NCBI GenBank assembly: GCA_030523345.1
Contig: JAUNIR010000017.1
Span: forward strand, 1-35,273
DNA: 35,273 nucleotides
Reading direction: 5' to 3'
Origin: Lachnospiraceae bacterium
GTDB taxonomy: Bacteria; Bacillota; Clostridia; Lachnospirales; Lachnospiraceae
Positions 881 to 21,855 of the stretch are shown here, in pieces. The notes below the pieces were generated by a model. That model saw only the letters and a program-made list of their open reading frames with translations. It ran no database searches and was not told where the DNA came from. Numbering within the stretch: the stretch's first letter is position 1; each line of letters begins with the position of its first letter. The position numbers and the translations under genes were made by a program.

Positions 881-896
881 TACTTAGGAGGCTAAG

Positions 897-1766: not shown

Positions 1767-1774
1767 TTAGTATA

Positions 1775-5563: not shown

Positions 5564-5623
5564 TATATGCCAGCAGGTAATAAGTGATTTTTCATAGGCC
5601 GTGCATTTAAATCAGGTTTACAT

Positions 5624-5627
5624 GGAG
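5624..5627 (+). promoter_or_regulatory. Ribosome binding site that decides the pilT start
   Basis: GGAG at 5624-5627 lies 6 nt before ATG 5634. The longer reading frame could begin at GTG 5601, but no purine-rich site precedes that codon, and the extra residues would lie upstream of the conserved PilT N-terminus. Confidence 0.6.
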
Positions 5628-5633
5628 AAAGGT

Positions 5634-6698: not shown

Positions 6699-6800
6699 TA
6701 TTTAGTGTGTCGATATAGATAGTGATAAAAAATACTAAAAATTAAGACAAATGTGAACTTAATCGTTTTCGTAAACAGTCTTTATTATTAAGAGGATAAA

Positions 6801-8018
6801 ATGCCAGGATTTATTTATAAGGCCATTGGGCCTGATGGAAAAGAGAAAAAAGGTAACATTCAAGCTGCTTCAAGTGAGCAGGCTATTATGAGACTTAAAA
6901 GTGATGGTCTTATTCCTGTTGAAGTGACAGCTGAGAATGTTCTTAATAAGGAAATAAACATAAGCTTCGGTACTAAGATTACAGCTAGAGATTACTGTGT
7001 ATTCTGTAGACAGATGCTTTCAATATTAGGGGCAGGAGTAAGTATTATCAATGCTCTTCAGATGTTATCAGAACAGACTGAAAATGCCGCACTTAAGAAA
7101 GGTATTGCAACAATTGCAGACGAAGTTGGAAAAGGTGAAACACTTTCGAATGCTATGAGAAAGCAGCCAAAGGTTTTTCCATCAATATTTGTTAACCTTG
7201 TAGAAGCAGGTGAGGCAACAGGTACACTTGAAATATCATTCGAAAGAATGGCTCTTCAGTTCGAAAAAGAAAACCAGTTACAACAGGTAATTAAAAAAGC
7301 TCTTACATATCCTATAATTGTAGGTGTTGTAGCAGTTGGTGTAATTTTTGCAATGATGACATTTGTTATTCCTACATTCATGAATATGTTTGCAGATATG
7401 GATGTAGAAATGCCGGCGATTACTCAATTTGTAATTAATATGTCTGACTTCTTTGTAGCATATTGGTGGTTACTAATAATTATAATTGTTGCTTTGATAT
7501 TTGGAATTAAAGCATATGCTAAGACACTTTCTGGAAGAGTATTATTTGGCACATTAGCAATTAAGATGCCAGTAGTTAGTAACGTTACTATAAAGAGTGC
7601 GTCAGCTAAATTTTCAAGAACCCTCTCTACTCTTTTGAGAGCAGGTGTTCCAATGATTCAAGCTCTTGAAATTACAGCTAATTCAGTTGAAGATAACATT
7701 CACTTCCAGAGAGCAGTATTCTCGGCAAGAGATCAGGTGGCAAATGGTTCATCACTCTCAAAGCCAATTAAAATGTCTGGCCTTTTCCCACCAATGGTAG
7801 AGCACATGATATCTATTGGTGAAGAGACGGGTAACTTAGAGGACATGCTTGAGAACGTAGCAGAGTATTATGAAGAAGAAGTAACAACAGCTACAGAGCA
7901 GATGATGACAGTATTAGAGCCAATGATGATATTGGTATTAGCTTTAATCGTCGGTGTAATCATTTTGGCAATTCTTCAGCCAATGACAACTCTTTATGAT
8001 GCGGTTGGAAATATGTAA
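6801..8018 (+). CDS. pilC: Type IV pilus inner-membrane platform protein PilC (GspF family)
   Basis: The 405-residue protein begins M-P-G-F-I-Y-K-A, typical of GspF/PilC. It has two repeated cytoplasmic GspF domains (about 66-190 and 265-390) and three membrane helices (about 167-193, 220-240 and 375-398). PilC is the platform that passes ATPase motion to pilin subunits. G-E-x-T-G signatures occur in both halves (E-A-G-E-A-T-G-T-L and S-I-G-E-E-T-G-N-L). It is preceded by AGAGGAT and a 102-nt gap after pilT in which I see nothing but a short inverted repeat, and it is followed by the major pilin. Confidence 0.95.
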   Translation: MPGFIYKAIGPDGKEKKGNIQAASSEQAIMRLKSDGLIPVEVTAENVLNKEINISFGTKITARDYCVFCRQMLSILGAGVSIINALQMLSEQTENAALKKGIATIADEVGKGETLSNAMRKQPKVFPSIFVNLVEAGEATGTLEISFERMALQFEKENQLQQVIKKALTYPIIVGVVAVGVIFAMMTFVIPTFMNMFADMDVEMPAITQFVINMSDFFVAYWWLLIIIIVALIFGIKAYAKTLSGRVLFGTLAIKMPVVSNVTIKSASAKFSRTLSTLLRAGVPMIQALEITANSVEDNIHFQRAVFSARDQVANGSSLSKPIKMSGLFPPMVEHMISIGEETGNLEDMLENVAEYYEEEVTTATEQMMTVLEPMMILVLALIVGVIILAILQPMTTLYDAVGNM

Positions 8019-8020
8019 GA

Positions 8021-8026
8021 TATAAT
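8021..8026 (+). promoter_or_regulatory. Possible pilin-proximal -10 element
   Basis: A perfect TATAAT lies just after the pilC stop, about 85 nt upstream of the pilin start. I could not find a convincing -35 element at 16-18 nt, so it may be chance in AT-rich DNA. A dedicated promoter would fit the high pilin dose that pili need. Confidence 0.25.
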
Positions 8027-8058
8027 CTCTTCGGAGTTTATATATAAAATGAATTTAG

Positions 8059-8079
8059 CCTGCGTGGAGCAGACGCAGG
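8059..8079 (+). promoter_or_regulatory. GC-rich stem-loop in the pilin leader
   Basis: CCTGCGT at 8059-8065 pairs perfectly with ACGCAGG at 8073-8079 around a 7-nt loop. It is followed by AAAATAATT rather than a U-run, so it is not an intrinsic terminator. It lies 30 nt upstream of the pilin ATG and ahead of a strong AAGGAAGG ribosome site. It is likely an mRNA-stabilising or processing hairpin at the 5' end of the pilin message. Confidence 0.55.
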
Positions 8080-8108
8080 AAAATAATTAAAAAGGAAGGT
8101 ATAAAAAA

Positions 8109-8525
8109 ATGAAAAATGATAACAAAGGTTTCTCACTTATCGAGCTTATCGTAGTTATTGCGATTATGGCTATCTTAGTAGGTGTACTTGCTCCACAGTT
8201 CATTAAGTATGTTGAGAGCTCAAGACAGTCTACAGATATTCAGAACGCTGCGGCTATTAGATCAGCTATTGAGGTTGGTGTTGCAGATTCAACAATTACA
8301 GGTGATGTAACAGTAGCGATTTCATCAAATGCAATCACTGTATCAGGTACTGGAACAGCAAGCGCTCTTACAGCTGTTGGTCTTTCTAGCTCAACACCAT
8401 GTAAGTCATCTGGCTGGAGTGATGGTACTATCGGAGAATATGATATTGAATCATACACATGGTCTGCTACAGATAAAGAAAATGGTAGCGAACCAAAGAA
8501 GAATATAGCAGAAGCATTTAAATAA
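8109..8525 (+). CDS. pilA: Major type IV pilin (PilA-like)
   Basis: This 138-residue prepilin has a short basic leader ending in Gly7, cleavage before Phe8, Glu12 at mature position +5 and the hydrophobic helix of classical pilins (G-F-S-L-I-E-L). The mature protein is about 131 residues, and the soluble part is rich in Ser/Thr/Ala. It has one cysteine, so the disulfide-bonded D-region of Gram-negative pilins is absent, as in clostridial pilins. Small size, position between pilC and pilD, a strong ribosome site (AAGGAAGG) and its own leader hairpin mark it as the major subunit. The minor pilins downstream are larger and lack these expression features. Confidence 0.92.
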   Translation: MKNDNKGFSLIELIVVIAIMAILVGVLAPQFIKYVESSRQSTDIQNAAAIRSAIEVGVADSTITGDVTVAISSNAITVSGTGTASALTAVGLSSSTPCKSSGWSDGTIGEYDIESYTWSATDKENGSEPKKNIAEAFK

Positions 8526-8530
8526 GAACT

Positions 8531-8546
8531 TATAGGTGAACCTATA
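8531..8546 (+). promoter_or_regulatory. Inverted repeat overlapping the pilD ribosome site
   Basis: TATAGGT (8531-8537) and ACCTATA (8540-8546) form a perfect inverted repeat with a 2-nt spacer. As RNA this gives a 6-bp stem closed by a UGAA tetraloop. The best ribosome site for pilD (AGGTGA, 8534-8539) lies inside it and ATG 8548 follows 1 nt later. The hairpin could dampen peptidase translation or protect the pilin mRNA 3' end. Confidence 0.5.
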
Positions 8547-8547
8547 T

Positions 8548-9303
8548 ATGTATAGAAATTTAATTCGTATAATAATTGCATGTTTTGGAGTACTAATAGG
8601 TAGTTTTCTCAATGTGTGTATATACAGGTTGCCTAAACATGAAGATATAGTTTTAACCCCTTCCCACTGCATGAATTGTGGGAAGAGGTTAAAATGGTTC
8701 GAACTAATTCCTGTGCTTAGTTTCCTCGTACAAGGGGGAAAGTGCAGAGGATGTAAGACAAAGTTATCCGTTCAATATCCTATTATTGAACTGCTCAACG
8801 GATTACTTTATTTACTGGTAGTTAGTATTTATGGTATGACGGTGCAATCGCTGATTTATTGCTTGCTTGCATCGGTGCTTATAGTGATATCAGTAATTGA
8901 TTTTAGAACGTATGAGATACCGGTAGGATGTAATATTTTTATTCTTATTCTCGGTATAGTACAGGTTGGTTTTGACCTACCACATATTTCAAAGTATGTG
9001 ATAGGATTTTTTGCTGTAAGTCTTGTATTATTTATGATCTGGCTTATAAGCAAGGGGAGAGCTATCGGTGGAGGAGATGTAAAGCTTCTTGCAGCATCAG
9101 GACTTCTCCTGGGATGGCAAAATGTTATTTTAGCTTTTGTTCTTGGATGTATTCTTGGAGCTATTATTCATTTGCTAAGAATGAAGATTCAGGGAGAAGG
9201 AAGAACACTAGCTTTTGGCCCCTATTTATCAATGGGTGTATTTATAGCAGCACTCTTTGGAGATAAATTAGTGAGCTTATATTTGGGGTATTTAGGTTTT
9301 TAA
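8548..9303 (+). CDS. pilD: Prepilin peptidase / N-methyltransferase PilD (A24 family)
   Basis: This polytopic membrane protease cleaves prepilin leaders after Gly and methylates the new N-terminus. The N-terminal methylase part starts with G-S-F-L-N-V-C-I-Y-R-L-P and holds two C-x-x-C pairs, the tetracysteine zinc site of bifunctional PilD. The aspartyl protease residues are Asp118 (V-I-D-F-R-T) and Asp177 in G-G-G-D-V-K. I chose ATG 8548 (251 residues) because AGGTGA lies 8 nt upstream. GTG 8536 is in frame but has no ribosome site. It should process the major pilin and the four minor pilins downstream. Length and motifs are normal. Confidence 0.94.
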   Translation: MYRNLIRIIIACFGVLIGSFLNVCIYRLPKHEDIVLTPSHCMNCGKRLKWFELIPVLSFLVQGGKCRGCKTKLSVQYPIIELLNGLLYLLVVSIYGMTVQSLIYCLLASVLIVISVIDFRTYEIPVGCNIFILILGIVQVGFDLPHISKYVIGFFAVSLVLFMIWLISKGRAIGGGDVKLLAASGLLLGWQNVILAFVLGCILGAIIHLLRMKIQGEGRTLAFGPYLSMGVFIAALFGDKLVSLYLGYLGF

Positions 9304-9318
9304 AAAGGGGAGTGCATT

Positions 9319-10962
9319 ATGGCACAAAGATTACTGTCAATTACACTTGGAACGACATCTGCAAAACTGGCAGAAATAATGCAGGCTGGCAAAAAAATAC
9401 AAGTTTTTTCAGCTTACGATATTCCTATATCAGAGGGACTTTTAGATGACGGTTTTATTCTTGATGTCGATTCTTTAGCCGAGGAATTAAAAGGCTTCAT
9501 TTCAAAGTATAAAATCAAGACTAAAAAAATAGCATTTTCAATTGCTTCCAAACGTATAGCAAGTAAGGAAGTTATTATTCCGTTTGTAAAAGAAAAGCAG
9601 ATACAAGGCCTTCTCAATATGAATGCTGCAGATTATTTCCCTGTTGGAAATATCGAAGATTATGCAATTAATTATTCAATTATTGAGACTGTTAAAAATG
9701 CAGAAAATACGCAATACAGACTAAATGTTATCGCGACACCAGGGGAACTTCTTGACGGATATACAGCATTAGCTAAAGCGATGAAGTGCTCTGTAGAAAT
9801 AGTTGATTTTGCCGGTAATGCAATTCTTCAAATTCTTAAGACACAGGCCCACTCTGGAGAAATTAATGCAATTCTTCAGCTTGGATACGAAAATACAGTA
9901 ATTAACATTATGAATGGTAATGTTCAAATAATGCAAAGAACTGTAGCAACGGGATACAACGCCCTTATTTCAACAGTAGCAGAGGCTGTTGGCTTAGATG
10001 AAGAAGATGCAACTGCATTCCTTGAAGATAACGATATTACAAGAATCTGTTCAGCGTATCCTGATGTTAAGTATGTATGTGATTCCCTTGTATCAAGTAT
10101 TGGAAGAATATTTGAATTTTATAATGGAAGATCAGCAGACCACCCTATTACGGGAGTAATGTTCATAGGTGATGCTACAGATATAAATGGTATTGGTGAA
10201 TCCCTTTCAGAAGGTCTTGGAATTGAAGCACAGGAGATATATACCCTTAGTAATGTCCAAGTAAAAACTAAACAGATTACTCCAGAATTTGCCACAAACT
10301 TTATGGCAAACATTGGTGTAGTGCTTGCACCAATGAATCTAAAATATGAACGTAAAGGCGAAGAAGAAAAGGCAAAGGAAGAGGGTAAGCTTCCTTGGGG
10401 GCTTGTAGTTATATCAGTTATAGCGGCTGTAGCTCTTGGAGTTACTAGCACAGTGCTATATCACATGGCAAAGACAGAAAGGGATGAGCTTAAAATAAAA
10501 CTAGACGCTTTGTCAGAGATACAATCGCTTGAAGACCAGCTTAGTGAAGCGCAAGCAAAAAATCAAGTTATTCAGAACTTTCTCGCATCTACTAAAGGAC
10601 CAAATGACTCGTTAATGAGACTTATTACGGATTTAGAAAAAATTATGCCATCAGGGATGTCAATTGATACGTTTTCGTTAGCAGATGGTAGTGTTACCTT
10701 GAGCGCAGGAGGCCACGGAAAGGCAAGCGTAGCTAGATTCATTGAAGAAATCAAAGCGTTAAAATATGTCGAAAGTGTCACGGTAGATTATGTATCAGAA
10801 GTAAATGAAGGCATGGATAAGTATGATGTATTTAATATGACCTTCTCCTTGCTAGATGTAAATGAAATAGAAGCGGCTGAGTCTAATGAAAATTCCGCAG
10901 AAGAGAATAGTGGAGAAGAGGCAAACACTGATGCTGATAATAATGTAGGAGGTGATGAGTAA
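9319..10962 (+). CDS. Fused PilM-PilN pilus alignment protein
   Basis: The 547-residue protein joins two normally separate assembly proteins. Residues about 1-350 are an actin-like PilM domain (L-S-I-T-L-G-T-T-S-A-K at the N-terminus; V-M-F-I-G-D-A-T late). A transmembrane helix follows (about 359-383), then a coiled coil and a PilN-like ferredoxin-type domain to about residue 515, and an acidic tail to 547. In Gram-negative systems PilM is cytosolic and docks on the first residues of membrane-bound PilN. Here that contact is covalent, and a segment just before the helix (A-P-M-N-L-K-Y-E) recalls the PilN I-N-L-L-P peptide. The stop overlaps the pilO start by 1 nt (TAATG), implying coupled translation. 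PilM assignment: strong. PilN half: from layout and context. Confidence 0.88.
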   Translation: MAQRLLSITLGTTSAKLAEIMQAGKKIQVFSAYDIPISEGLLDDGFILDVDSLAEELKGFISKYKIKTKKIAFSIASKRIASKEVIIPFVKEKQIQGLLNMNAADYFPVGNIEDYAINYSIIETVKNAENTQYRLNVIATPGELLDGYTALAKAMKCSVEIVDFAGNAILQILKTQAHSGEINAILQLGYENTVINIMNGNVQIMQRTVATGYNALISTVAEAVGLDEEDATAFLEDNDITRICSAYPDVKYVCDSLVSSIGRIFEFYNGRSADHPITGVMFIGDATDINGIGESLSEGLGIEAQEIYTLSNVQVKTKQITPEFATNFMANIGVVLAPMNLKYERKGEEEKAKEEGKLPWGLVVISVIAAVALGVTSTVLYHMAKTERDELKIKLDALSEIQSLEDQLSEAQAKNQVIQNFLASTKGPNDSLMRLITDLEKIMPSGMSIDTFSLADGSVTLSAGGHGKASVARFIEEIKALKYVESVTVDYVSEVNEGMDKYDVFNMTFSLLDVNEIEAAESNENSAEENSGEEANTDADNNVGGDE

Positions 10963-11870
10963 TGACATTGACTAATAAAGATAAAAAACTCCTCATATAT
11001 TTATTATCAATTGGTATAGTTGCCTTGGTATATTTCTTCGTAGCTAGGCCAAACCTCGACAAACAGCAAGAACTTCTTGATGAGAATACAAAGCTCGAGA
11101 TGCAGATAAATCACTATAACACTATATATGCGCACCAAGAAGAATATATAAAACAGATAGCAGAAGCACAGGTTGCGTATTCAGAAACAATCGATAAGTT
11201 TTTCGGTGGGCTTAATCAAGAGAATACACTTATAAACATTAAAGGAATTGAAGATGCAACAAGCACTTGGGTTTCAAGAATTTCATTTCAGGAAACACAG
11301 ATAATGCTTGGTAACGGTGCAGAAGGCGAAGCACCAGCAGGTGAGAATGAGGAAGCAACGGAAGATTTAACTGTTTCATCAAGTCAATTAACAGGTATGA
11401 AACAAGAACTAAACTTAGATTACTCATGTAATTATTCTGATTTTAAGAGATTCGTTGAACTTGTTCAGAATTACGACCAGCGTTTATATATATCATCTTT
11501 GAATGCGGCATATTCTATGGAATCAAATAAAGTAGAGGGAACGTTAGTATTGTCGCAATTTGCATTATTAGGAACTGATAAAGAATATTCAGCTCCTGAC
11601 TTATCAAATATTGGTGTCGGAGTAGATAATATTTTTTCAACACTAAGGGGCGAACCACAGGAAGCAGGCGCCACAGGTACTGTTGAAACTATAGAAAACC
11701 CTGAAGGAGAAGAGGGTGAAGCTACTGAAGGTGAGGAATCTAGTAGTGAAGACTCGTCAGGTGAAGAATCATCTGGTGAAGAAAATGTTGAAAATGATAA
11801 TGCTGGTCAGAATGAAGAAGCTCAGCCTGAACCAGACAGACGTAGACCACAGGGTGGTGGAATAATATAA
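10962..11870 (+). CDS. pilO: PilO-like pilus assembly protein with acidic tail
   Basis: The 302-residue protein has a short cytoplasmic N-terminus, one membrane helix (about 10-30), a coiled coil (about 32-75), then a PilO-like alpha/beta domain to about residue 220. PilO pairs with PilN to form the periplasmic or extracellular alignment ring that links the motor to the fibre. The last 75 residues are an acidic Glu/Ser/Gly-rich segment with repeated S-G-E-E, ending in a basic-Gly tip (R-R-R-P-Q-G-G-G-I-I). A very strong GTAGGAGGTGA site and a 1-nt overlap with the preceding gene indicate coupled, near-equimolar synthesis. Sequence similarity to PilO is weak; the call rests on position, topology and size. 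Confidence 0.75.
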   Translation: MTLTNKDKKLLIYLLSIGIVALVYFFVARPNLDKQQELLDENTKLEMQINHYNTIYAHQEEYIKQIAEAQVAYSETIDKFFGGLNQENTLINIKGIEDATSTWVSRISFQETQIMLGNGAEGEAPAGENEEATEDLTVSSSQLTGMKQELNLDYSCNYSDFKRFVELVQNYDQRLYISSLNAAYSMESNKVEGTLVLSQFALLGTDKEYSAPDLSNIGVGVDNIFSTLRGEPQEAGATGTVETIENPEGEEGEATEGEESSSEDSSGEESSGEENVENDNAGQNEEAQPEPDRRRPQGGGII

Positions 11871-11911: not shown

Positions 11912-13159
11912 ATGAGGAAAGAGAAATTTATATTTTCTAAATTTAATAAAGACAATAGAGGTTTCTCGATTGTAGAACTTATAGTTGCTGTATCTATATT
12001 AGCAGTTGTATTTATACCTGTGCTTAAGAACTTTACAATGGGTGCGCTTACAAATGCAAAGGCACAAAAAATGCAAAATGTTACATCTGTTGCCGAGAAA
12101 ATGATGGAAGAAGTTAAAGGCGACAGCATTGAAAAATTGTACGACGATGCTGTTGCATCAGAAGATATCATGTTTTTATCAGGTGCCGATGCGACAGATT
12201 ATTTAAGTGGTGGAGAACATTCTTCGGATAGCGCAGATTATGATGAACCTCCATATGTAATCGTATATGACAAAGCTATAGCAACGCAGGGAACTACGTA
12301 TAAGGTGTGTGTGAAAATTGACCACGCATCATATGCTATAGGTTCTGCACCAGATGCGAGCAGAATAAATACCGTTAAATTACCACAGTTATATGATGTT
12401 AAGGATTCTAAGGACCATGCGGTATTGTCATGGGAAATGTCGGAATATGATTTTAATGCATTTAATAATCTTGCAGACGAAAATACAAGGGAAGAAAGTA
12501 CAAATTCCAGCATAAAAAATATTATCAAAGATAATGGTATAAAGACTACGACAATTACACTAGATGATGCATCAGGTGGTACGGTGGATATTTCGTGTAA
12601 TGTTACATATACGACGGGAAACTCATCATACTCGAAAGCTCTGGAATATGACGTATATTCTGGAAATCTTAAAAATCTTGATGTTGATGAAGAAAACAAT
12701 GGCGGACCACATATATATCTTTTTTACAAGATGGCTGCCATTGACAATTCCGAATATATGCCTCATGAGGTTATCAGTGTAGTAGATAATACAACAGCTG
12801 GAGTGCATAATGTGTACTTGATGCTCCAAAATAATGGATATATCAATGATTTACGATATACTAATGAGACTAAGTCTGCGGATCTTGAATTGACATACAA
12901 CGGCAATACATTGGCTAAAGGTGATGGTTCTGGATTATCTGCGACTCATTGGAACAGCCCTGAAGGAGCTGCCCATAAATGGGATTATTATACGAATCTA
13001 ACAAGTAATTATGGCATCGAAAGTGGTAATTTATACGATGTCAAAAGAAAAAACAGAGTCTATGAGGTAACAGTCACTGTTTATGATGGAGATGAGTATA
13101 TGACCGAGGTGGTTTCGTCTATGGGTTCAGGAGAAGAAGCTAAATCTTATATAAATTAG
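11912..13159 (+). CDS. Minor type IV pilin, PilV/GspI-like, large
   Basis: The 415-residue prepilin has a 17-residue basic leader ending in N-R-G, cleavage before Phe18, Glu22 at +5 and a standard hydrophobic helix. Residues after the helix (A-K-A-Q-K-M-Q-N, E-K-M-M-E-E-V-K) resemble PilV/GspI pseudopilins, whose helix ends in a similar stretch. The soluble domain is about 370 residues, versus 100-150 in the classical family, and I do not recognise it. It is Asp/Asn/Tyr-rich with many predicted strands. I see no clear ribosome site before the ATG, which suggests modest expression fitting a minor subunit. It begins the block of four minor pilins. Confidence 0.85.
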   Translation: MRKEKFIFSKFNKDNRGFSIVELIVAVSILAVVFIPVLKNFTMGALTNAKAQKMQNVTSVAEKMMEEVKGDSIEKLYDDAVASEDIMFLSGADATDYLSGGEHSSDSADYDEPPYVIVYDKAIATQGTTYKVCVKIDHASYAIGSAPDASRINTVKLPQLYDVKDSKDHAVLSWEMSEYDFNAFNNLADENTREESTNSSIKNIIKDNGIKTTTITLDDASGGTVDISCNVTYTTGNSSYSKALEYDVYSGNLKNLDVDEENNGGPHIYLFYKMAAIDNSEYMPHEVISVVDNTTAGVHNVYLMLQNNGYINDLRYTNETKSADLELTYNGNTLAKGDGSGLSATHWNSPEGAAHKWDYYTNLTSNYGIESGNLYDVKRKNRVYEVTVTVYDGDEYMTEVVSSMGSGEEAKSYIN

Positions 13160-13172
13160 GTAGACAGTATTG

Positions 13173-15902
13173 ATGCAGGGTAAGTACAAGAAAAGAATAT
13201 TGGATTTAATGAAAGACAACAGGGGTTCCACGATTGTTATGGTCCTTGTTGCTTTTTTATTTGTATCTGTACTAGTTTCTATCATAATGGCAAGCGTTGT
13301 TGTTAACTTTAGAATGAGAGCAATTGATAGAAAGACGAAGGACGAGTTCTATTATGCAGAGAAAGCTTTAAATGATGTATATGCCGGATTAGGAGAAAAC
13401 TGTGCAAGTGCATTGGGTAGTGCGTATAACGTTACTATGTCTAAATATTCGGCGAGTAGCACAGGTTCATACCAGGATCAGGTGCTTGCTTATGACGAAT
13501 TTTGTGGAGAATTTCTAAGATATATTTATACTTCTATTGGTGATTCATATGGTCTTTCAATTGGTCCAGGTTATACTGCTGATGATAAGAAAGCTCTTAT
13601 TAATAAGATGAATGAATACATCGTAGGTAACCGCGCAAAGGTTATAAGCATAGGTGACATTAAATACTTGGAATCTGATAGAAAAGAATTATTGGACACA
13701 TCGGAGGATAAATATCCAAGTATAAAATACACAGTTATAAAAAATGTAAAAATTGTTTCAGACATGTCTTCTAGTGACAATACTGGATATATGTCAGGTG
13801 TAACTGCAGATATTGTCATAGAGACACCACAGATAGACTTTTTTACAGTTAATGAGAAAGATTTAGATTACGCCATAGCTGCTAGTAATGGAATTGAATT
13901 TAATGGCGATGCAACAATTAAGGGAAGTGTGTATGGCGGATCAAGACCTACTGCCAAAATAAATGATGCAGGACTCATCGATGAATACAAGGGAGCGCTC
14001 GGCGGCGAAAAATATATGACAGACGCAAGTGACTATGGCGGAATTCTTGTAGATGGAAAAAAGGTATCAATAGATGGTGAATATGTTGTCTCTGGCGGAG
14101 ATATTTATATAAAGAATGATGGAGAACTGACAATTACCCATAATACTAAAAATGAGGTATGGTTTGACAATATTACTGTAGAAGGCAATGGAGCTAAACT
14201 TAAAATAGACGGAGATTTATATGCGCAGGGAGACATTCAAGTAGAAGGTGACAATGCGGAAGTTATAATTGGTGGAAACTATTATGGCTACAACAATGGC
14301 GCATATGAATCAAAAGCAGATGAGTTAACAGATGATGTTGGAAGAAATAAGGCTAACGCTTCAAGCAAGTACTCATCTGTCATAGTTAACGCAGATGAAG
14401 CTAAGGTTGATATGACCGGCTTGGATACATTGGTACTACTTGGAAAGGCCTTTATTAATCATGAATCAAAGAGAACAAAGGATTCAAATTCACTGAGCGT
14501 CATAGGCGATGACAATAATGTGCATGACGATTACAAAACAAAATCGGAAAAAGATGATATAGGAGAAAGCGTTGCGCTAAGATCAGGGCAGCAAATATTC
14601 CTGTGTCCAACTGAGTTTTTGAAGGGAGAGTTGAATCCAAAAGAATTTTCAGATGCAACTTTTGATTTTAGTGTAGATAAAAAAAGTATGAGAAAATGGT
14701 TCGGCTGGCAGTATTTAGATGAAGATAGTCCGGTAAGAACTGTAAAGCTTTCAAAAAATGGCGTACATAGAGCGTACTGCTATTTAAATTTTGCTGGTAC
14801 AGGCGATACGAAGAATAAAAATCAGCGTAAATATGTTGAAGATATAGTAAACGGTATTTCTAGTGTAGACAGCTGTGAACCAAAGCCTGAGACAATGAGA
14901 ACTAGACTTGCACAGGCAAACAGATTACAAAAAAGTGAAATTCGTATTGGAAATGACAATACGAGAATATATGCTAATGGCTCTATAGTTCAATATGAGC
15001 CTGGAGAAGATGATGGTGATGTCGACACCTCATCGCTTGGAACAATAAGTGTTAAGGGAAATACCGAAGATTTCAAGAGATATAATAACTATGGTGGCGA
15101 TATGCACTATAAATATCAAAGCTTATGCACATATCTTGACCCAGTAACAAATAGGAAAAACACAGTTGAGAGTGTATCTATCGATGACTATGAGAATGAG
15201 GATCTTCCGTTTGGAAGATTGTTTTGGCTGAACGGTGTAGAAGAGCTTGCAGAGGGAGAAGTACTAACAAGTAGAGTTATTAATGATCAAGGAAAATATG
15301 TGGATTATATTAAAGGCTGTGATAGCACTGTAATTGTATGCAGGGGTGCAGAAGGGGACGCCTTCTATGAAGGAAAGATGGCTCCTAAGTATGGATCTGC
15401 TGTAGATGTTGCGAGTGTCCTTTCAAGGGCAGACATCAATACTAACAATGCAACTCCTACAAATGTTTTCATGATTGTAGATGGAGATGCTTATGTTAAA
15501 GATAATGTAACAATTAATGGATTCCTGTATGTTAATGGAGAACTGATTGTAGAAAATGGAGCTACTCTTAACGTTACATATAATTCAACATTGCTAGATA
15601 AAAGAATAGAAGCAGAATTGAAGAGGTTAAAGCAGGAATATCTAAACGAGAAAAAAAATAACGGAGACTCTGCAAAAGTGGAAAATTGCTATGACAAAGC
15701 AACACTCATTTACTATTTGTTGGATTACACTATTTCGAAAAATGGTAGTAGTATTGATCCTGAAATTGGAAATATAGTAAGCAGTAATGTCAATTCTCAT
15801 AGAAAGTATTCTATTGATGAGAAGACCGGAGAAATAGCGAATGATGTAACATCTGATTACAGTCAGTTTATGTATTTTGAAAATTGGAGGAAAGGGCAGT
15901 AA
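13173..15902 (+). CDS. Giant PilX/GspK-like minor pilin with beta-helix body
   Basis: The 909-residue protein starts with a basic leader ending in N-R-G (Gly18), followed by S-T-I-V-M-V and a long hydrophobic helix. Position +5 is Met instead of Glu, a known trait of GspK-type tip pseudopilins. The helix is followed by an alpha segment (F-Y-Y-A-E-K-A-L), like PilX/GspK proteins. Much of the rest is rich in short repeating strands (G-D-A-T-I-K-G-S-V-Y-G-G; V-T-I-N-G-F-L-Y-V-N-G), the pattern of bactofilin-type beta-helices. The region around residues 228-255 resembles the protein at 20509. GspK is usually about 300 residues, so this is threefold longer. TTG 13170 is an alternative start one codon upstream. 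The stop overlaps the next start (TAATG). Confidence 0.82.
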   Translation: MQGKYKKRILDLMKDNRGSTIVMVLVAFLFVSVLVSIIMASVVVNFRMRAIDRKTKDEFYYAEKALNDVYAGLGENCASALGSAYNVTMSKYSASSTGSYQDQVLAYDEFCGEFLRYIYTSIGDSYGLSIGPGYTADDKKALINKMNEYIVGNRAKVISIGDIKYLESDRKELLDTSEDKYPSIKYTVIKNVKIVSDMSSSDNTGYMSGVTADIVIETPQIDFFTVNEKDLDYAIAASNGIEFNGDATIKGSVYGGSRPTAKINDAGLIDEYKGALGGEKYMTDASDYGGILVDGKKVSIDGEYVVSGGDIYIKNDGELTITHNTKNEVWFDNITVEGNGAKLKIDGDLYAQGDIQVEGDNAEVIIGGNYYGYNNGAYESKADELTDDVGRNKANASSKYSSVIVNADEAKVDMTGLDTLVLLGKAFINHESKRTKDSNSLSVIGDDNNVHDDYKTKSEKDDIGESVALRSGQQIFLCPTEFLKGELNPKEFSDATFDFSVDKKSMRKWFGWQYLDEDSPVRTVKLSKNGVHRAYCYLNFAGTGDTKNKNQRKYVEDIVNGISSVDSCEPKPETMRTRLAQANRLQKSEIRIGNDNTRIYANGSIVQYEPGEDDGDVDTSSLGTISVKGNTEDFKRYNNYGGDMHYKYQSLCTYLDPVTNRKNTVESVSIDDYENEDLPFGRLFWLNGVEELAEGEVLTSRVINDQGKYVDYIKGCDSTVIVCRGAEGDAFYEGKMAPKYGSAVDVASVLSRADINTNNATPTNVFMIVDGDAYVKDNVTINGFLYVNGELIVENGATLNVTYNSTLLDKRIEAELKRLKQEYLNEKKNNGDSAKVENCYDKATLIYYLLDYTISKNGSSIDPEIGNIVSSNVNSHRKYSIDEKTGEIANDVTSDYSQFMYFENWRKGQ

Positions 15903-16492
15903 TGGACAATATGAAATTAAAAAATGCTGGCTTTTCTCTTGTTGAACTTATAGTAACAATGGCCATTGCGTCAATACTTGTAGGAGGCGTGTCTTTTAGC
16001 GTTTCTTTGGCATTCAGCAAAGATGCGGCAAGATGTGCGACTATATTAAACGACACTTTATCGTCAGTCAGGATGGACTCAATGTCAAGGCCTGGAGATT
16101 ATACAGTGGAAATTAAGGATGAAAATGATGGCGGTTCCCCTTCTAAGTATGTGGCTGTAGTGACATGCAAAGAGGACAGACCAGGAGAAGAACCTCTAGA
16201 CATAATACCACCGGAAACTATTTATCTTGAAGGCGATGCTGGAGAGAATAGGATAAAAACGATTACGGCAACGCTTGAGAGTAGTGGAAGTAGTATCCCG
16301 TTAATGGATGCATCTTCGCACTCAGTTAAGATTTCTTTTGATAAATCAAAAGGCTATGTTAAAACAGGTGCTGGAACTGATATTCCGGATGAGGGTATTA
16401 TTGTATTCCATATTGAACCTGTAAGAGGAAGCCGTGAAGAGGATGTATCACTTATCACATCTACTGGAAAACATACAATAGGTACTTATTAG
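15902..16492 (+). CDS. Minor type IV pilin, FimT/GspH-like
   Basis: This 196-residue prepilin has a 10-residue leader ending in Gly10, then F-S-L-V-E-L with Glu15 at +5, and the usual helix (M-A-I-A-S-I-L-V-G-G). Short length and the following beta-rich domain fit the FimT/GspH class, which has a beta-sandwich head. I chose ATG 15902, which overlaps the preceding stop and is preceded by GGAGGAAAGG. An upstream in-frame TTG at 15884 would cut through that ribosome site. It is the only minor pilin here of ordinary size, lying between two very large ones. Confidence 0.87.
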   Translation: MDNMKLKNAGFSLVELIVTMAIASILVGGVSFSVSLAFSKDAARCATILNDTLSSVRMDSMSRPGDYTVEIKDENDGGSPSKYVAVVTCKEDRPGEEPLDIIPPETIYLEGDAGENRIKTITATLESSGSSIPLMDASSHSVKISFDKSKGYVKTGAGTDIPDEGIIVFHIEPVRGSREEDVSLITSTGKHTIGTY

Positions 16493-16494
16493 TT

Positions 16495-19400
16495 ATGAAA
16501 ATGAAAAACAAAGGATTTTCGCTAGTTGAATTATTGGTTGCAATTACTATTGCCGCATTAGTTGCAGGAAGTGTTGGATATCTTCTTACAACTTCTCTTC
16601 GTATGTTCGGAAATGAAGCTACAGATATAGCACAGCAGCAGGAACTTCAGACTTCTTTAAACACAATTATAGATTATGCAATGGAAACTCAGACCGTTGT
16701 TGTTAATAATTCTGGTACTAAGACAAATTATTTGGCACTCGGTACAGTGAAGAGTTCTGATTCATCAAAACTCGATGCTGAAATCTTCTTTACTGATGAC
16801 CAAAACAGGCTTTATATGTGCAAAAAGGTTATTGATGACTATGAAAAAACTCAGGATACAGAACCAAAAAATCTCGACGATAAGGTAAGAGCGATTAAAG
16901 CTGACGCATTAGGGGACGCCGAAAGCTTACCTCAGTATCTTCTTGCTGAAAACGTTACGTCATTTTATGCGGAACTAAACGGTACAAAGACAGAAGATTC
17001 AGGCAAGAGAATATATAATAATCCTTTAAATCTAGAAATTACATTAGAATTTTCTAAGAAAAGTGCTACAAAGGAAATAAATAAAAAGGTTTCAGACAAG
17101 GCTGTATTTAGAAATACGTTACATACGAAGATATTTAAGAACGGTCTTGATTATGATGACCCAAGTAAGAATTCGCTTGTGTTATCAACTGAGACGGTGA
17201 ATTTAGAAAAGAATGCTGCGAAGATACAAACTCCAGGCACGGAAGTAATTCCTAGAAGAAATTTACATATTTTGGAGATAGTACCAGACTACAGTTATGA
17301 TTACGCTCAGTATGCTATTGGAGGGTACAAAGGCGATATAAATAACTATAGGAATGTATCATATGGAAGAAGCAGCACTTATGGCCCTGTTACAGCAGGG
17401 GAACTGGAAGGATTTCTTATTCAGACTGGTGGCGAAAAGGGTGATGAAATCGGTAATCTGACCAATAAGAGTGAAGATATGATAAATAGTTTTTATCCTA
17501 ATTCTTCGGAAAGATCAGATTTACCAAGTCTTATATTGACACCAAAGGTTGAAAGAAATGGTTATTATGAGTATGTAGGCGAAGAAAATGGTGGTGTATA
17601 TGCCATAGATAGCTATCTAGAAGCGGGAAATGTTACAAGGGCCGGAAGAGGTAACTCAAAGCCAAAAGTAAAAGGATTTACAAAAAAATATGAGTCATGG
17701 GGTGGCAAAGATGATAAAAACTGGACGGAAAAAGTATTCAATCCAGTATTCGAATACTGTGCAAGTGAAGACCCGAGTAAAGACTACTATAAAGCGGTTC
17801 CTACAACATCTGGTAAAGAAGAATACGTACTAAAGAAAGCATTGATAGATGGAAACGAAGTCGAATACTATGAGTATGTTGGTAATGAGGAAATAGAGGG
17901 CAAAGTGGCTCTAAATTTTGAAAAAAGCTACTATAGGAACAAGCAAGGCTACGATAAATGGAATGGATATTGTTACGCAGTAAGTGAATCACACGATATG
18001 GTAGACCCGAATGGTGGCGAGTATTATGCAGTAATAGATGGATGGGAGAGCCGTAATTTAGACGATCCTGATGATGCTCCATACGAGTGGGGATATGATT
18101 TTGATATGTCAGTTGCAAGTGCAACAATGTATTCAAAGTACTATCCACACCCAGACAAAGGCAGAGAGGAAAAAGATAAAAAGGCAAAGAGTGCGGACTT
18201 CGGATGGGTATGGCACGAGGCTGAGGCTGGATCTGAGTTAAATTATAGAATTAATAAAGGAGAATATTATACACCGATTGGAAAGATCGATCTTGGCGAA
18301 AAAGGTTCGGGAAAGACTTATGCGCTAGGAACAAAACTGTATTTAAAAAATCATACCAGGAATGGTCTTATCAATAATGATTTATTTAAATTATATGTTA
18401 TGCAGGATACATTAGAGCAATTTGTTGATGGAGACAAAAAGATGCTTGATGTATTAAATGGCCGTTATGATATAACGAATAATAGATATAGTGAAGTCAA
18501 TGATAAAGCTATAAAAAATTGGGAAGACTCAGGAAACTATATACAGTTAGATGTGCGAATCCCTGCGGATTTATCTGATGAGGATATTGCTAACTGCGAT
18601 ATGGTCATTATAGGAACTGCAGGTGATGGTGGATTTGATTTTGCGAATGGATGGGCAAAATTAATTAAAAACGCAACTGCTGAAACTACCTATTCTGCAA
18701 CAAATGATATTACATTCCATCAGGCAACAGAAATATATAAGAGAGTTTGCGAAGAAGAAATTGGAATTGCAGCGCCATATCTTCTGAAAACAGTAGGTGG
18801 ATCAGCGGGAACTTTGAACATGTCGAAAATGTATTATATGTGCTACTGTGTATCTAACTATGACCTTGTGGATTCTGCAACACAGAGACCTCAGATTGCA
18901 ATAGAACAGACTGTAAGAGCTGCAAAGGAGAAAAAGATTGAGGAACAAGGTGATGACAACTATTGGACAAGAAATCCTGATTATATGAGTAATATTGAAA
19001 ATCAGGTAATGATAAAAGGATGTGGTAGAGACTTTTTCAAGGATTATCTCATAACAATAATAAATGAAAATAAAGCGCTTTCGCAACCTTTGTATGATAA
19101 TGGAACGCTTAGGAATAAGACGTCAGATTTTATATATATTGATGCGAATGGAAATATTGTGATTCCTGGAAAAAATACAACAATTACCGAAGGGGGAAAA
19201 AGTTATACCATCAGGTATGAAGATGATGTTAAGCCAAGCTTTGGTCAAGGTGGTGGATCAACTATTTCTGACTTTGAATATAATTTCTTATTGTATGGCA
19301 AAAACAATTTTTTGTATGATCGATATAGAGCACATTTAACTGGATATGATCAGAAGAGAAACGTAACAGATTTTGTATATAATCCAAAATATCATCTAAA

Positions 19401-20295
19401 AGATTCTGGTGTTGAAGATAGAAAAAATCCAAAGGAAGACGATTACTGCGGGCACATGTATAAATTTTATTACGATGATGGACGCGCTAGTCATGATGGT
19501 ATATATCGAAATATGCTCTTATATAATCAGACATCTGATTTATTTTCGTTTAGTATGGCAGGAAACCATGGAATCTTGCAGTTAAAAACGATTAACCAGA
19601 ATTCAACACCTGCACAAAAGATTAAGATTCCAAAGGATGTAGGTGAAATTCAGCTCGTAGGATTTTCAGTAGGCGAGTATGTTGAAAATTCAGGCGGACC
19701 TAGAGACAACGGAAGATATAATTTACCTAGTGACCATGAATCTATGACCTATAGTCAATGTAAAACCGAGAAAAACATGTTCTATCAGCATGAATTCGAA
19801 AACCTATGGATTGATCCTATTGAGGGTAAAGAGGATGAAAGGAAGAAAGTAGCGTACATATCTGAAGAAGAATTGAAACTTGCACAAAAATATGATAATG
19901 GAATGTTCGTATACATATTAGTTAAATCTGATGAAAACCTATATGATGAAATGACTAAAGAAAATGAATATAATCCGTATTTGTATTACAATAACCTCCA
20001 GGGTGAAAAAGGAATTAGTGAGATTTTTCCAGAATGGCCTGGTGAAGCTGTGAAATATGCAAAAGAAGATGGCAAGTATGTTACAGAATTTAGAGCACAT
20101 ATTCCTGCTAGTTATTTTAAAGCTGGACCAGAGGATTCTGCTCCCGAATTTATAGCGCCAACAAACGAAGGAAAAAATATAATTACGGCGCAAGTTGGAA
20201 AAGTAGATGTTTGGACTCAGTTTGAAAAAACAGAAGAGATGCATGGAACCATAACATTTTACATATGTGTGAGAGATACTCTCGATTTAGATTAA
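16495..20295 (+). CDS. Giant PilW/GspJ-like minor pilin, 1266 residues
   Basis: The N-terminus is a canonical prepilin: leader ending in Gly7, F-S-L-V-E-L with Glu12 at +5, a hydrophobic helix, then A-Q-Q-Q-E-L-Q-T-S-L-N-T-I-I-D-Y, typical of PilW/GspJ. Residues up to about 230 look like an enlarged GspJ head. About 1000 further residues follow that I do not recognise. They contain an alpha/beta-looking block starting L-H-I-L-E-I-V-P (257-264) and continuing to C-D-M-V-I-I-G-T-A-G (701-710), a Tyr-rich section with two Y-Y-E-Y-V-G copies (357-362, 458-463), and a beta-rich end. GspJ is about 200 residues, so this is a sixfold expansion. Being last in the minor-pilin block, it may sit at the fibre tip as an adhesin or enzyme; that is inference. 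The gene starts 2 nt after its neighbour with no evident ribosome site. Confidence 0.85.
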   Translation: MKMKNKGFSLVELLVAITIAALVAGSVGYLLTTSLRMFGNEATDIAQQQELQTSLNTIIDYAMETQTVVVNNSGTKTNYLALGTVKSSDSSKLDAEIFFTDDQNRLYMCKKVIDDYEKTQDTEPKNLDDKVRAIKADALGDAESLPQYLLAENVTSFYAELNGTKTEDSGKRIYNNPLNLEITLEFSKKSATKEINKKVSDKAVFRNTLHTKIFKNGLDYDDPSKNSLVLSTETVNLEKNAAKIQTPGTEVIPRRNLHILEIVPDYSYDYAQYAIGGYKGDINNYRNVSYGRSSTYGPVTAGELEGFLIQTGGEKGDEIGNLTNKSEDMINSFYPNSSERSDLPSLILTPKVERNGYYEYVGEENGGVYAIDSYLEAGNVTRAGRGNSKPKVKGFTKKYESWGGKDDKNWTEKVFNPVFEYCASEDPSKDYYKAVPTTSGKEEYVLKKALIDGNEVEYYEYVGNEEIEGKVALNFEKSYYRNKQGYDKWNGYCYAVSESHDMVDPNGGEYYAVIDGWESRNLDDPDDAPYEWGYDFDMSVASATMYSKYYPHPDKGREEKDKKAKSADFGWVWHEAEAGSELNYRINKGEYYTPIGKIDLGEKGSGKTYALGTKLYLKNHTRNGLINNDLFKLYVMQDTLEQFVDGDKKMLDVLNGRYDITNNRYSEVNDKAIKNWEDSGNYIQLDVRIPADLSDEDIANCDMVIIGTAGDGGFDFANGWAKLIKNATAETTYSATNDITFHQATEIYKRVCEEEIGIAAPYLLKTVGGSAGTLNMSKMYYMCYCVSNYDLVDSATQRPQIAIEQTVRAAKEKKIEEQGDDNYWTRNPDYMSNIENQVMIKGCGRDFFKDYLITIINENKALSQPLYDNGTLRNKTSDFIYIDANGNIVIPGKNTTITEGGKSYTIRYEDDVKPSFGQGGGSTISDFEYNFLLYGKNNFLYDRYRAHLTGYDQKRNVTDFVYNPKYHLKDSGVEDRKNPKEDDYCGHMYKFYYDDGRASHDGIYRNMLLYNQTSDLFSFSMAGNHGILQLKTINQNSTPAQKIKIPKDVGEIQLVGFSVGEYVENSGGPRDNGRYNLPSDHESMTYSQCKTEKNMFYQHEFENLWIDPIEGKEDERKKVAYISEEELKLAQKYDNGMFVYILVKSDENLYDEMTKENEYNPYLYYNNLQGEKGISEIFPEWPGEAVKYAKEDGKYVTEFRAHIPASYFKAGPEDSAPEFIAPTNEGKNIITAQVGKVDVWTQFEKTEEMHGTITFYICVRDTLDLD

Positions 20296-20508: not shown

Positions 20509-21855
20509 ATGAAACAGTACGTTACAAGTATTTGTATATTTACAAGTTCATTAATTTTATTGTTAGCCATATGTGTGTTGTCCTGTTCGGCTAAGATGAC
20601 AGGTTATCTATTGGAAAAGCGGGATAGCACTGTTGTAGCCAGAGGTGTAGAGGGTCTTGATCTTGCTAAAAGAGCTATTGAGACTGACATGAAGGAAAAG
20701 GTGGAAGAGGCTTCAGTAGAAGCATTTAATAGCTTAACTTCTACAATCTATGAGGCAGGGGTTAATATTACAGAAGAAGAGGCTAACAGCTTATATAAAG
20801 GGACAGTTCTTCAAATCCTAAAGGCCAAATATGGAATGTTAGGTGGGACTGAAGATGATGCAAATTATAATCTTATAAAAAGTCTCGAAGATAAATTGCC
20901 AGGACTTAGCACAGGTGAGTTAAAGCTAGTGGAAAATTCAGTTCCAACTTTGGAAAGAGATGGCAACAGAATTAACCTTGGCAACGTAGATGTAGCATTT
21001 TGCTATGGAAATAGTTACAACAATAGTATAAAATTTGATGTTTTTGCATATTTGAGCGATATTTCCTTATATGATGAAAATCCTGAGTTGTTCAAATACG
21101 CTATAGTGGCGGATAAGGGAGTATACATCACAGGTAAGACATCAACGATTATAGGTAATATTTTTGCAGGAACTCATAGCCCAACAGAGCTTAGAAAAGC
21201 TGAGGCGCTTTATGGCGAGAGTGGTACATACGGTGGAGTTAACATCATGTCAACTCAAGTTGCGATAGATGCAGATAGAATCGTTACAGATGGTGCGATT
21301 AATATGAAAGGTGCATTTGTCGTATTCGGTAGTGAAAACAGACCTGTAGAAATAATTGCAGCCGATGTGATGGAAACAGATAATATCGCCAACAAAAATA
21401 TGTATGCGCTTTTTGGAAAGGTTAAAAACCAGGATATAAGTCTTGATAGAGACATGGTTAATGAGGCAATGCAGTATTTTGGAAGTATTGAATATTACTA
21501 TGACTCGAATAATGACAAAACGTATATTGGTAGATATAGAAAAATTATTTCGTCGACAGATATAACAATAGACAGCGATGTTACTGGAGTTGTTATGACG
21601 CCGGGTAATGTAATTATCAATGAAGGTGTTAATGTTGAAGGTCTGATACTATCCGGAGACAGAGTGTATGTTCAGGGGAATAATAATATCGTTGCCTCGG
21701 TAGAAGTGCTAAGAGAAATTTTAGCAGAAGAGTTATATGCCAACATGCATATAGAAGATGAGTCAGATACTTTGGAAGAACAGGCACGTAATAAGCTTCA
21801 TGTTGATATGAAAGATTACCTTGGAGGAATTGTTTACAGAGGAATCAATAAATAG
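20509..21855 (+). CDS. Membrane-anchored beta-helix protein, paralogue of the giant PilX-like pilin
   Basis: The 448-residue protein has an N-terminal signal anchor (about 8-30) but no prepilin cleavage motif. A helical region (about 45-140) is followed by a beta-rich body of short strands separated by Gly/Asn turns, as in bactofilin-like polymer-forming domains. The segment Y-A-I-V-A-D-K-G-V-Y-I-T-G, continuing to I-G-N-I-F-A-G, closely parallels Y-A-I-A-A-S-N-G-I-E-F-N-G and its continuation in the 909-residue minor pilin. It has its own candidate promoter and a leader hairpin, and lies directly after the pilus operon. It is probably a surface or membrane-associated pilus accessory. No specific function is recognised. 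Confidence 0.7.
   Translation: MKQYVTSICIFTSSLILLLAICVLSCSAKMTGYLLEKRDSTVVARGVEGLDLAKRAIETDMKEKVEEASVEAFNSLTSTIYEAGVNITEEEANSLYKGTVLQILKAKYGMLGGTEDDANYNLIKSLEDKLPGLSTGELKLVENSVPTLERDGNRINLGNVDVAFCYGNSYNNSIKFDVFAYLSDISLYDENPELFKYAIVADKGVYITGKTSTIIGNIFAGTHSPTELRKAEALYGESGTYGGVNIMSTQVAIDADRIVTDGAINMKGAFVVFGSENRPVEIIAADVMETDNIANKNMYALFGKVKNQDISLDRDMVNEAMQYFGSIEYYYDSNNDKTYIGRYRKIISSTDITIDSDVTGVVMTPGNVIINEGVNVEGLILSGDRVYVQGNNNIVASVEVLREILAEELYANMHIEDESDTLEEQARNKLHVDMKDYLGGIVYRGINK

What the first reader, a model, noticed from the sequence alone, without database searches (positions are those of the whole stretch)
16495..20295. A 1266-residue PilW/GspJ-like pilin with about 1000 residues of unrecognised sequence
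It has a fully canonical prepilin start but is roughly six times the length of classical GspJ/PilW. The extra part contains an alpha/beta-looking block (residues 257-710, L-H-I-L-E-I-V-P ... C-D-M-V-I-I-G) and a Tyr-rich region. As the last minor pilin of the operon it may cap the fibre and act as an adhesin, sensor or enzyme. I know of no described pilus tip protein of this architecture.
Basis: partly seen in the sequence, partly recalled or inferred. Interest (0 to 1): 0.75.

Follow-up and report, generated by a model that had tools for sequence, protein, structure and literature searches.

The report
Minor pilin fused to operon partner
This bacterium carries a very long pilus protein in which a normal minor pilin has been joined to part of a large secreted protein that its relatives make from the next gene, which suggests that this little-known partner protein works at the tip of the pilus.

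Summary
The 1266-aa ORF is real and has a canonical prepilin start. It is not a frame artefact: a second species of the genus has a 1218-aa orthologue aligned over residues 4-1266 at 43% identity. The 'unrecognised' 1000 residues are not orphan sequence. In nine congeners the same slot holds a 239-276-aa pilin followed, 0-59 nt on, by a separate 767-942-aa ORF with a hydrophobic N-terminus. Profile comparison ties such ORFs to the extension (99.7%, E 1.7e-25; reversed controls 0.2% or less). They are in turn a short form of a large secreted-type protein ('giant') found behind the minor pilins in 52 of 60 sampled type IV pilus loci of the family. Giants carry Pfam DUF5057; of 397 family genomes 79 have DUF5057 and 77 of these also have PilM/N. 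P0001 is thus a derived fusion of the last minor pilin with a reduced giant: signal peptide and DUF5057 part lost, first domain and C-terminal tail kept. Best reading: a pilus-tip modular pilin, the giants being a stand-in for PilC/PilY1. Tip location and ligand are inferred; the alpha/beta fold stays unconfirmed (AF2 pLDDT 38).

The parts
16495..20295 (+). 1266-aa fused prepilin (P0001)
   Evidence: orthologue G014 (L028 4714-8370, 1218 aa)
16495..17160 (+). pilin module, residues 1-222, equals the separate pilin of nine congeners
   Evidence: profile of nine short pilins hits residues 1-222, i-E 3.8e-41; N_methyl
17161..17262 (+). junction, residues 223-256: no second signal peptide, whereas the nine separate ORFs start with a hydrophobic segment
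   Evidence: best 15-residue hydropathy after residue 40 is 1.0, against 1.7-2.5 at the N-termini of the nine split ORFs
17263..18864 (+). module homologous to the split ORF and to domain 1 of the giants (residues 257-790), with an apparent large insertion at about 395-606
   Evidence: profile of nine split ORFs hits 17257-17676 (E 5.0e-5) and 18313-18864 (E 8.0e-10), colinear with profile 88-212 and 236-393; hhalign 99.7% vs ten split ORFs, 97.7-98.0% vs giants
17269..17286 (+). ILEIVP motif
   Evidence: ILEI.P-type motif in 48 of 49 full-length giants vs 4 of 235 other ORFs over 450 aa (pattern written after seeing giants)
18865..20292 (+). divergent C-terminal part, residues 791-1266; FIYIDANGN (879-887) resembles DYIYIDNDG of split ORFs
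   Evidence: no significant profile match of this part to the giants' end (0.4%)
20278..20292 (+). C-terminal tail TLDLD, cf. LFDLD of giants and FFMLD of split ORFs
   Evidence: tail pattern in 46 of 49 full-length giants vs 1 of 235 other ORFs (pattern written after seeing giants)
9319..10962 (+). PilM-PilN fusion gene
   Evidence: Pfam PilM_2 and PilN
3857..9303 (+). extension ATPase (3857-5563), retraction-type ATPase (5601-6698), platform protein (6801-8018), major pilin (8109-8525), prepilin peptidase (8536-9303)
   Evidence: Pfam T2SSE, T2SSE, T2SSF, N_methyl, Peptidase_A24; the names PilB, PilT, PilC, PilD and 'major' are recalled or by position
10962..11870 (+). PilO-like protein
   Evidence: by position only; no PilO model hit
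11912..16492 (+). minor pilins: I-like 415 aa (11912-13159), K-like 910 aa lacking Glu5 (13170-15902), H-like 202 aa (15884-16492)
   Evidence: subtype letters inferred, all NCBIfam subtype hits are below cut-off
20509..21855 (+). 448-aa protein without prepilin motif; homologues near several split-type loci

Best explanation
P0001 is a natural gene fusion. Residues 1-222 are the operon's last minor pilin (J-like). Residues 257-1266 are a reduced form of the large secreted-type protein that relatives encode as the next gene. Shown by sequence: the split state in relatives, homology of the module, one origin of the fused state on the tree made, absence of a second signal peptide, and retention of the C-terminal tail. 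Inferred: the prepilin peptidase cuts after Gly7, the pilin helix carries the module across the membrane, and the H/I/J/K minor-pilin complex that starts a pilus holds J so that the module is displayed at the tip, where it binds a surface or ligand. In relatives the separate giant would be held at the tip by the same minor pilins non-covalently, as PilC/PilY1 is in diderm T4aP; the fusion makes that contact covalent.
For: Orthologue of the same fused form in G014. Nine congeners with pilin plus separate ORF 0-59 nt apart. Homology: profile of the nine ORFs finds the window genome at E 8.0e-10 and 5.0e-5, colinear; hhalign 99.7% with ten split ORFs and 97.7% with 20 giants, reversed and unrelated controls at most 0.5%. 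PilM/N tree of 25 rows: the two fused genomes form one clade (100/100), sister to nine split ones (100/99) (9 of 22 inner branches open, midpoint root). Giant present in 52 of 60 sampled T4P loci, next ORF after the J-like pilin in 50. Of 397 family genomes 79 have DUF5057, 110 PilM/N, 77 both. Two genomes of other families of the class carry a DUF5057 giant in a T4P cluster behind minor-pilin genes (L205, L206). Tail kept after fusion. Giants' N-termini look hydrophobic (by eye), and 39 of 49 have a DxNxDGxF-type loop against 9 of 236 other ORFs. [quoted passage not shown]
Against: No experiment places P0001 or any giant on a pilus. Homology is strong only over about 150 columns (ext. 391-569), weaker around ILEIVP, and not significant over the C-terminal 475 residues. 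P0001 has no DUF5057 hit and no DxNxDGxF loop, so it may have lost the giant's main function. In 33 of 110 PilM/N genomes no DUF5057 was found, and 13 loci examined have no giant at all (3 of the 60, ten of the 20), so it is not essential for this pilus type. In L205 another ORF of 1234 aa lies between pilin and giant, and the L206 giant lacks the tail. The extension could not be modelled.
Confidence: 0.68

Rival explanations
1. The module (and the giants) are not tip effectors but envelope parts of the pilus machine of a thick-walled cell, for example a wall-anchored guide or gate that contacts the minor pilins only during assembly.
For: Giants have N-terminal hydrophobic segments that could be uncleaved anchors (by eye). 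Genes just upstream of the pilus genes encode an M23 peptidase, a bactofilin, a response regulator and a GH25 protein, suggesting that wall passage is handled here. Giants accompany 52 of 60 sampled loci.
Against: A fixed envelope part fused to a pilin that is polymerised and moves with the filament would be dragged away or would block extension; two species keep the fusion. Copies vary greatly in length (726-2847 aa), more like effectors than machine parts.
Confidence: 0.17
2. P0001 is an enzyme-bearing pilin: the alpha/beta block is an active glycosidase, esterase or amidotransferase-like domain acting on wall or host glycans.
For: Alternating helices and strands in both models. Giant consensus has SVLFTHD and YDMxIxGF motifs, which I recall from amidotransferase-like folds. 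Weak Foldseek hits of the giant model to GH123 glycosidases, a carbohydrate esterase and PAD enzymes (best E 2.4e-4).
Against: These hits have TM-scores of 0.09 or less on the query, the output does not say which part matched, and many further hits are Ig-like sandwiches. No credible profile match to a solved enzyme. P0001 resembles domain 1 only, not the SVLFTHD-bearing domain 3.
Confidence: 0.08
3. The fusion is a degenerating or read-through remnant with no function of its own.
For: C-terminal half is divergent; DUF5057 part and the Ca-type loop are gone.
Against: Reading frame open over 1218-1266 codons in two species at 43% identity; conserved C-terminal tail.
Confidence: 0.04
4. Chance or assembly artefact joining two genes.
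For: Split state in nine congeners.
Against: A second genome, G014, has the same join, also without the split ORF's start.
Confidence: 0.01

Closest known systems
Modular type IV pilins (PilB and PilC of Streptococcus sanguinis; PMC8179133, PMC9934059, passages read)
   Same: N-terminal pilin module with class III signal peptide plus a bulky C-terminal module; minor pilin; likely tip location
   Different: Their modules are general domains (vWA, lectin). Here the module is a copy of a T4P-operon partner that relatives make separately; about 1040 residues, no Pfam domain.
PilC/PilY1 of diderm T4aP (PMC7541494 abstract; PMC8179133 passages)
   Same: Giants: very large secreted-type non-pilin encoded beside the minor-pilin genes; by analogy held by the minor-pilin complex
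   Different: No T4P_PilY1 (PF05567) match in P0001 (E<=1) or in 23 giants (E<=0.01). P0001 is itself a pilin. PMC9934059 states that PilC/PilY1 is absent in monoderms.
Pfam DUF5057 (PF16480)
   Same: Marks the giants: 23 of 23 aligned giants match; with PilM/N in 77 of 79 genomes
   Different: Domain of unknown function; absent from P0001, which resembles only the giant's first domain
CofB-CofJ of ETEC T4bP (passages in PMC8179133 and PMC10191384)
   Same: Large minor pilin plus secreted partner, proposed at the tip: two separate proteins
   Different: Not compared by sequence here; CofB has beta-rich domains

Membership tests
Modular type IV pilin | Class III signal peptide and hydrophobic helix at the N-terminus | tested here: met
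   N_methyl and TIGR02532 over cut-offs
Modular type IV pilin | Extra C-terminal module beyond a complete pilin module | tested here: met
   pilin profile of nine short pilins covers residues 1-222, profile positions 7-246; module homologous to a separate ORF
Modular type IV pilin | Module displayed on the pilus with a direct role in a pilus function | not testable with these tools
   needs wet work
GspJ/PilW minor pilin | Match to a J-subtype model (TIGR01711) | tested here: inconclusive
   no gspJ hit at E<=1; only sub-cut-off hits such as GspH, ComGE, ComGF. J assigned by position next to I-, K- (no Glu5) and H-like genes
PilC/PilY1 | T4P_PilY1 beta-propeller (PF05567) | tested here: not met
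   absent from P0001 and from 23 giants; 0 of 37 genus genomes, but the control rang nowhere, so that search alone shows nothing
PilC/PilY1 | Large secreted non-pilin bound to the tip minor pilins | not testable with these tools
   gene order and fusion fit this for the giants; no binding data
DUF5057 (PF16480) | Match over the gathering cut-off | tested here: not met
   P0001 and G000: no match; giants: 23 of 23 match
T4P giant family (defined here) | ILEIVP domain 1 homologous to giants | tested here: met
   hhalign 98.0% to domain 1, 97.7% to whole giants with reversed control 0.2%
T4P giant family (defined here) | C-terminal tail of LFDLD type | tested here: met
   TLDLD here, TFDLD in G014; pattern in 46 of 49 giants
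T4P giant family (defined here) | DUF5057-bearing domains 2-3 | tested here: not met
   2.8% and 1.4% to domains 2 and 3; the split ORFs lack them too (1.3%, 0.2%)
Class-I-amidotransferase-like fold | Fold match to a solved member | tested here: inconclusive
   model of the extension unusable; giant model gave no such match among the 50 rows listed of 1786

The most novel reading that the evidence does not exclude
DUF5057-type giants are an undescribed family of pilus-tip effectors, the monoderm counterpart of PilC/PilY1, carried by most T4P operons of this family; the window catches one lineage turning the non-covalent 'minor pilin plus tip effector' design into a single modular pilin, which shows that the two known ways of arming a pilus tip are interconvertible and that J is the giant's docking partner.
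Probability: 0.55. Interest if true: 0.8.

Novelty: new variant of a known kind. Interest (0 to 1): 0.62.

Why it matters
Monoderm T4P have been described as lacking a PilC/PilY1-type protein (PMC9934059, passage read). Here a very large secreted-type protein of unknown function lies behind the minor pilins in 52 of 60 sampled T4P loci of one family, and a natural fusion names its likely contact: the last minor pilin. That gives a Pfam family of unknown function (DUF5057) a concrete place and a direct test, in bacteria whose pili have unknown targets. It also gives a clear case of module exchange between a tip-effector candidate and a pilin.

Tried and rejected
AF2 of the extension (12 rows): pLDDT 37.7, pTM 0.33; Foldseek without hits at E<=1e-3; used for no claim beyond the order of helices and strands. 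AF2 of a giant (23 rows): pLDDT 64.9; fold hits weak, and the output does not say which part matched; the amidotransferase idea stays unconfirmed. PDB sequence and profile searches: nothing credible. Genome-contig scan with P0001: two loci matching only residues 1-25, not pursued. Plasmids: no match. The fused two-row profile and the nine-ORF profile against two giants of the same genus gave nothing (0.9% and 4.0%); the link to giants appeared with a profile of 20 giants. I recalled DUF5057 from memory and asked whether P0001 is one: it is not. The 939-991-aa pilins of five congeners were first taken as the same thing; their extension is unrelated to P0001's. Papers: 'DUF5057' no paper; PilY1+Clostridia+monoderm two; Roseburia+type IV pili+minor pilins none; type IV pilus+Lachnospiraceae+minor pilin two (listing only); further listings. 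Read: passages of PMC8179133, PMC10191384, PMC9934059, PMC6916266 and the abstract of PMC7541494. 'Not in print' means not found by these searches of an open-licence library.

Rows dropped and biases: the 60-locus sample follows the rank of PilM/N hits, so it is not random; own genus (G000, G025) and three contig-end places (G375:C211, G406:C66, G166:C390) were skipped beforehand; L171, L174 and L178 end before the slot, L179 inside it. Tail and motif patterns were written after seeing giants. No reversed control was run for the domain 1-2-3 comparison. In the comparison of pilin length with and without giant, L169, L179, L211, L217, L218, L222, L225 and L228 were left out as ambiguous or truncated, L171, L174 and L178 as truncated, and the four second-set loci with a giant-like ORF (L210, L212, L214, L221; pilins 173-279 aa) were not counted on the giant side. 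The listing was cut in the middle; L032-L034 were shown again.
Full report
Observation. The ORF 16495-20295 (+) encodes 1266 residues without a stop. Residues 3-27 match the prepilin methylation motif (Pfam E 3.2e-7; TIGR02532). Nothing else in Pfam, NCBIfam or PDB sequences matches credibly. The gene starts 2 nt after the stop of a 202-aa pilin gene; it is the fourth of four minor-pilin genes (415, 910, 202, 1266 aa) behind two T2SSE-type ATPases, a platform protein, a pilin, a prepilin peptidase and a PilM-PilN fusion. The 910-aa protein lacks Glu at position 5 of the mature helix, the others have it, which fits the capping (K) subunit as described in PMC10191384 (passages read). Subtype letters are otherwise inferred: all subtype models score below cut-off.

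It is a real gene. Of 99 genomes searched, the window's own and one other (G014, same genus) have a full-length relative: G014's is 1218 aa, aligned 4-1266, 43% identity, E 3.6e-203, in the same operon order. The window's genome has one full-length copy; the only other match there is the neighbouring pilin. That genome is 91.6% complete.

What the extra 1000 residues are. Of 37 genomes of the genus, 16 match the fused profile: two fused (window, G014), nine with only the pilin part (239-276 aa), and five with a 939-991-aa pilin of another kind; 21 show no match. In the nine, the pilin gene is followed after 0-59 nt by a separate ORF of 767-942 aa that begins with a hydrophobic segment. A profile of these nine ORFs, run against the 37 genomes, finds the window at 17257-17676 (E 5.0e-5) and 18313-18864 (E 8.0e-10), and G014 likewise (E 7.9e-6, 2.2e-16), in colinear order. 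With ten split ORFs (the nine plus one from another genus), hhalign gives 99.7% (E 1.7e-25); reversed profiles, the K-protein profile and the other long pilins give 0.1-0.5%. So the fused gene equals the pilin of the relatives (residues 1-222, i-E 3.8e-41) plus the neighbour's product minus its signal peptide. Homology is clear over about 150 columns, fair around the ILEIVP motif, and only local (FIYIDANGN, tail) in the C-terminal 475 residues.

The split ORF is a short form of something bigger. The same profile hits 34 of 397 genomes of the window's family, mostly in open frames of 1200-2340 aa. Twenty such loci (19 chosen by that hit, one, L138, from a congener; hence biased) were fetched; in 18 the ORF is the next one behind the last pilin of a T4P operon, while L132 and L138 show no such neighbour and lie near a contig end. 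To avoid that bias I searched for the PilM/N protein: 110 of 397 genomes have it at E<=1e-20. Sixty loci taken in rank order from that list were fetched. Fifty-two of 60 carry the giant (E<=1e-3 to a profile of 20 giants), in 50 as the next ORF after a J-like pilin; L156 and L195 have a small ORF between. Of the other eight, three end before the slot, L179 ends in it, L169 has a 935-aa ORF with motif and tail but no profile hit, and L186, L193, L194 have none. The 23 giants that I put in one alignment all match DUF5057. Over 397 genomes DUF5057 occurs in 79, of which 77 also have PilM/N; 33 have PilM/N without DUF5057 (Fisher p 1e-52, not corrected for relatedness). I fetched 20 of those 33: four have a giant-like ORF without DUF5057 hit (726-2847 aa), ten show none, six are ambiguous or truncated. 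In 291 genomes drawn from the class, DUF5057 rings in five; two of these are of the window's family, two (L205, L206) are of other families and carry the giant in a T4P cluster behind minor-pilin genes, and one sub-cut-off hit (G510) shows no pilus genes among the ORFs compared. In L205 a 1234-aa ORF lies between pilin and giant and a prepilin peptidase gene follows; the L206 giant lacks the tail.

Anatomy of the giants. They show a hydrophobic N-terminus (by eye), an ILEIVP-type motif (48 of 49 full-length giants; 4 of 235 other ORFs over 450 aa) and a C-terminal tail of the type LFDLD (46 of 49; 1 of 235). Three successive segments start with such a motif; segment 2 resembles 1 (92.7%) and 3 (95.0%), while 1 against 3 gives only 14% (no reversed control). 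The extension resembles segment 1 only (98.0%), as do the split ORFs (99.6%), and lacks segments 2-3 with DUF5057, but keeps the tail. A DxNxDGxF-type loop, as in calcium-binding proteins (recalled), is in 39 of 49 giants against 9 of 236 other ORFs and is missing from P0001 and the split ORFs looked at. AF2 of one giant (L166) reached pLDDT 64.9 and pTM 0.62: helices and strands alternate, then strands predominate. PDB fold hits were weak (nine at E<=1e-3, best 2.4e-4, TM-score on the query 0.09 or less): GH123 glycosidases, a carbohydrate esterase, PAD3 and, further down, Ig-like and adhesin sandwiches such as FnBPA and Cnm. AF2 of the window's extension failed (pLDDT 37.7).

Direction of change. 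In a PilM/N tree of 25 rows the two fused genomes form one clade (100/100), sister to the nine split ones (100/99). With the split state in 52 of 60 sampled loci, the fusion is best read as derived, once.

Mechanism. Shown: fusion, one origin on that tree, no second signal peptide, kept tail. Inferred: the pilin part is processed and joins the H-I-J-K complex that starts the pilus; the module is displayed at the tip. Minor pilins and PilY1 form a priming and tip complex in Myxococcus (PMC7541494, abstract), and modular pilins of S. sanguinis are modelled as displaying adhesive modules at the tip (PMC8179133, PMC9934059, passages). A gene fusion of J with the giant suggests that the two normally touch. 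Which ligand is bound, or whether the module acts as an enzyme or a sensor, is open.

Comparison with the known. P0001 meets the sequence definition of a modular pilin. By model it is neither a PilY1 family member nor a DUF5057 protein; it may work like the first. PMC8179133 names as its most extreme multi-domain case an 860-residue protein; P0001 is longer, and a 1396-aa pilin in L227 is longer still. PMC9934059 says PilC/PilY1 is absent in monoderms; the giants are candidates for that role. A search for 'DUF5057' found no paper.

A pattern that fits: where no giant was found the J-like pilin has 400 aa or more in 10 of 13 loci, against 15 of 52 with a giant (p 0.003, not corrected for relatedness; ten of the 13 were fetched because they lack DUF5057; four further giant-bearing loci with short pilins were not counted). 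It is as if effector mass sits either in the partner or in J.

Verdict.

Noticed in passing
L038 11113-13932, L039 6425-9307, L040 1616-4477, L041 10449-13271, L042 3950-6925: Five congeners have a J-like pilin of 939-991 aa whose extension is unrelated to the window's; in L039 and L043 (L043 is of the same genome as L040) a separate DUF5057 giant follows a long pilin. The consensus looks Ig-like in places, by eye.
   Followed up: partly
L227 (G269): J-like pilin of 1396 aa, no giant-profile hit behind it; longer than the window's.
   Followed up: no
window 13170-15902 and K-like proteins of L028-L199: Many K-like proteins end in a YENWxK-type C-terminus, a second tail motif in the same operon (by eye).
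   Followed up: no
window 113-3853: Upstream of the pilus genes: M23 peptidase, bactofilin, response regulator and GH25 proteins, perhaps for wall passage.
   Followed up: partly
L134 9171-14072 and 14316-19001: Two giants in tandem behind one T4P operon, the second cut by the end of the stretch.
   Followed up: no
L211 (G161), third ORF: A 2475-aa ORF behind PilO whose best window BLAST match is the major pilin.
   Followed up: no
window 20509-21855: 448-aa protein with a weak, sub-cut-off bactofilin-like stretch and local similarity to the 910-aa protein; homologues near several split-type loci.
   Followed up: no
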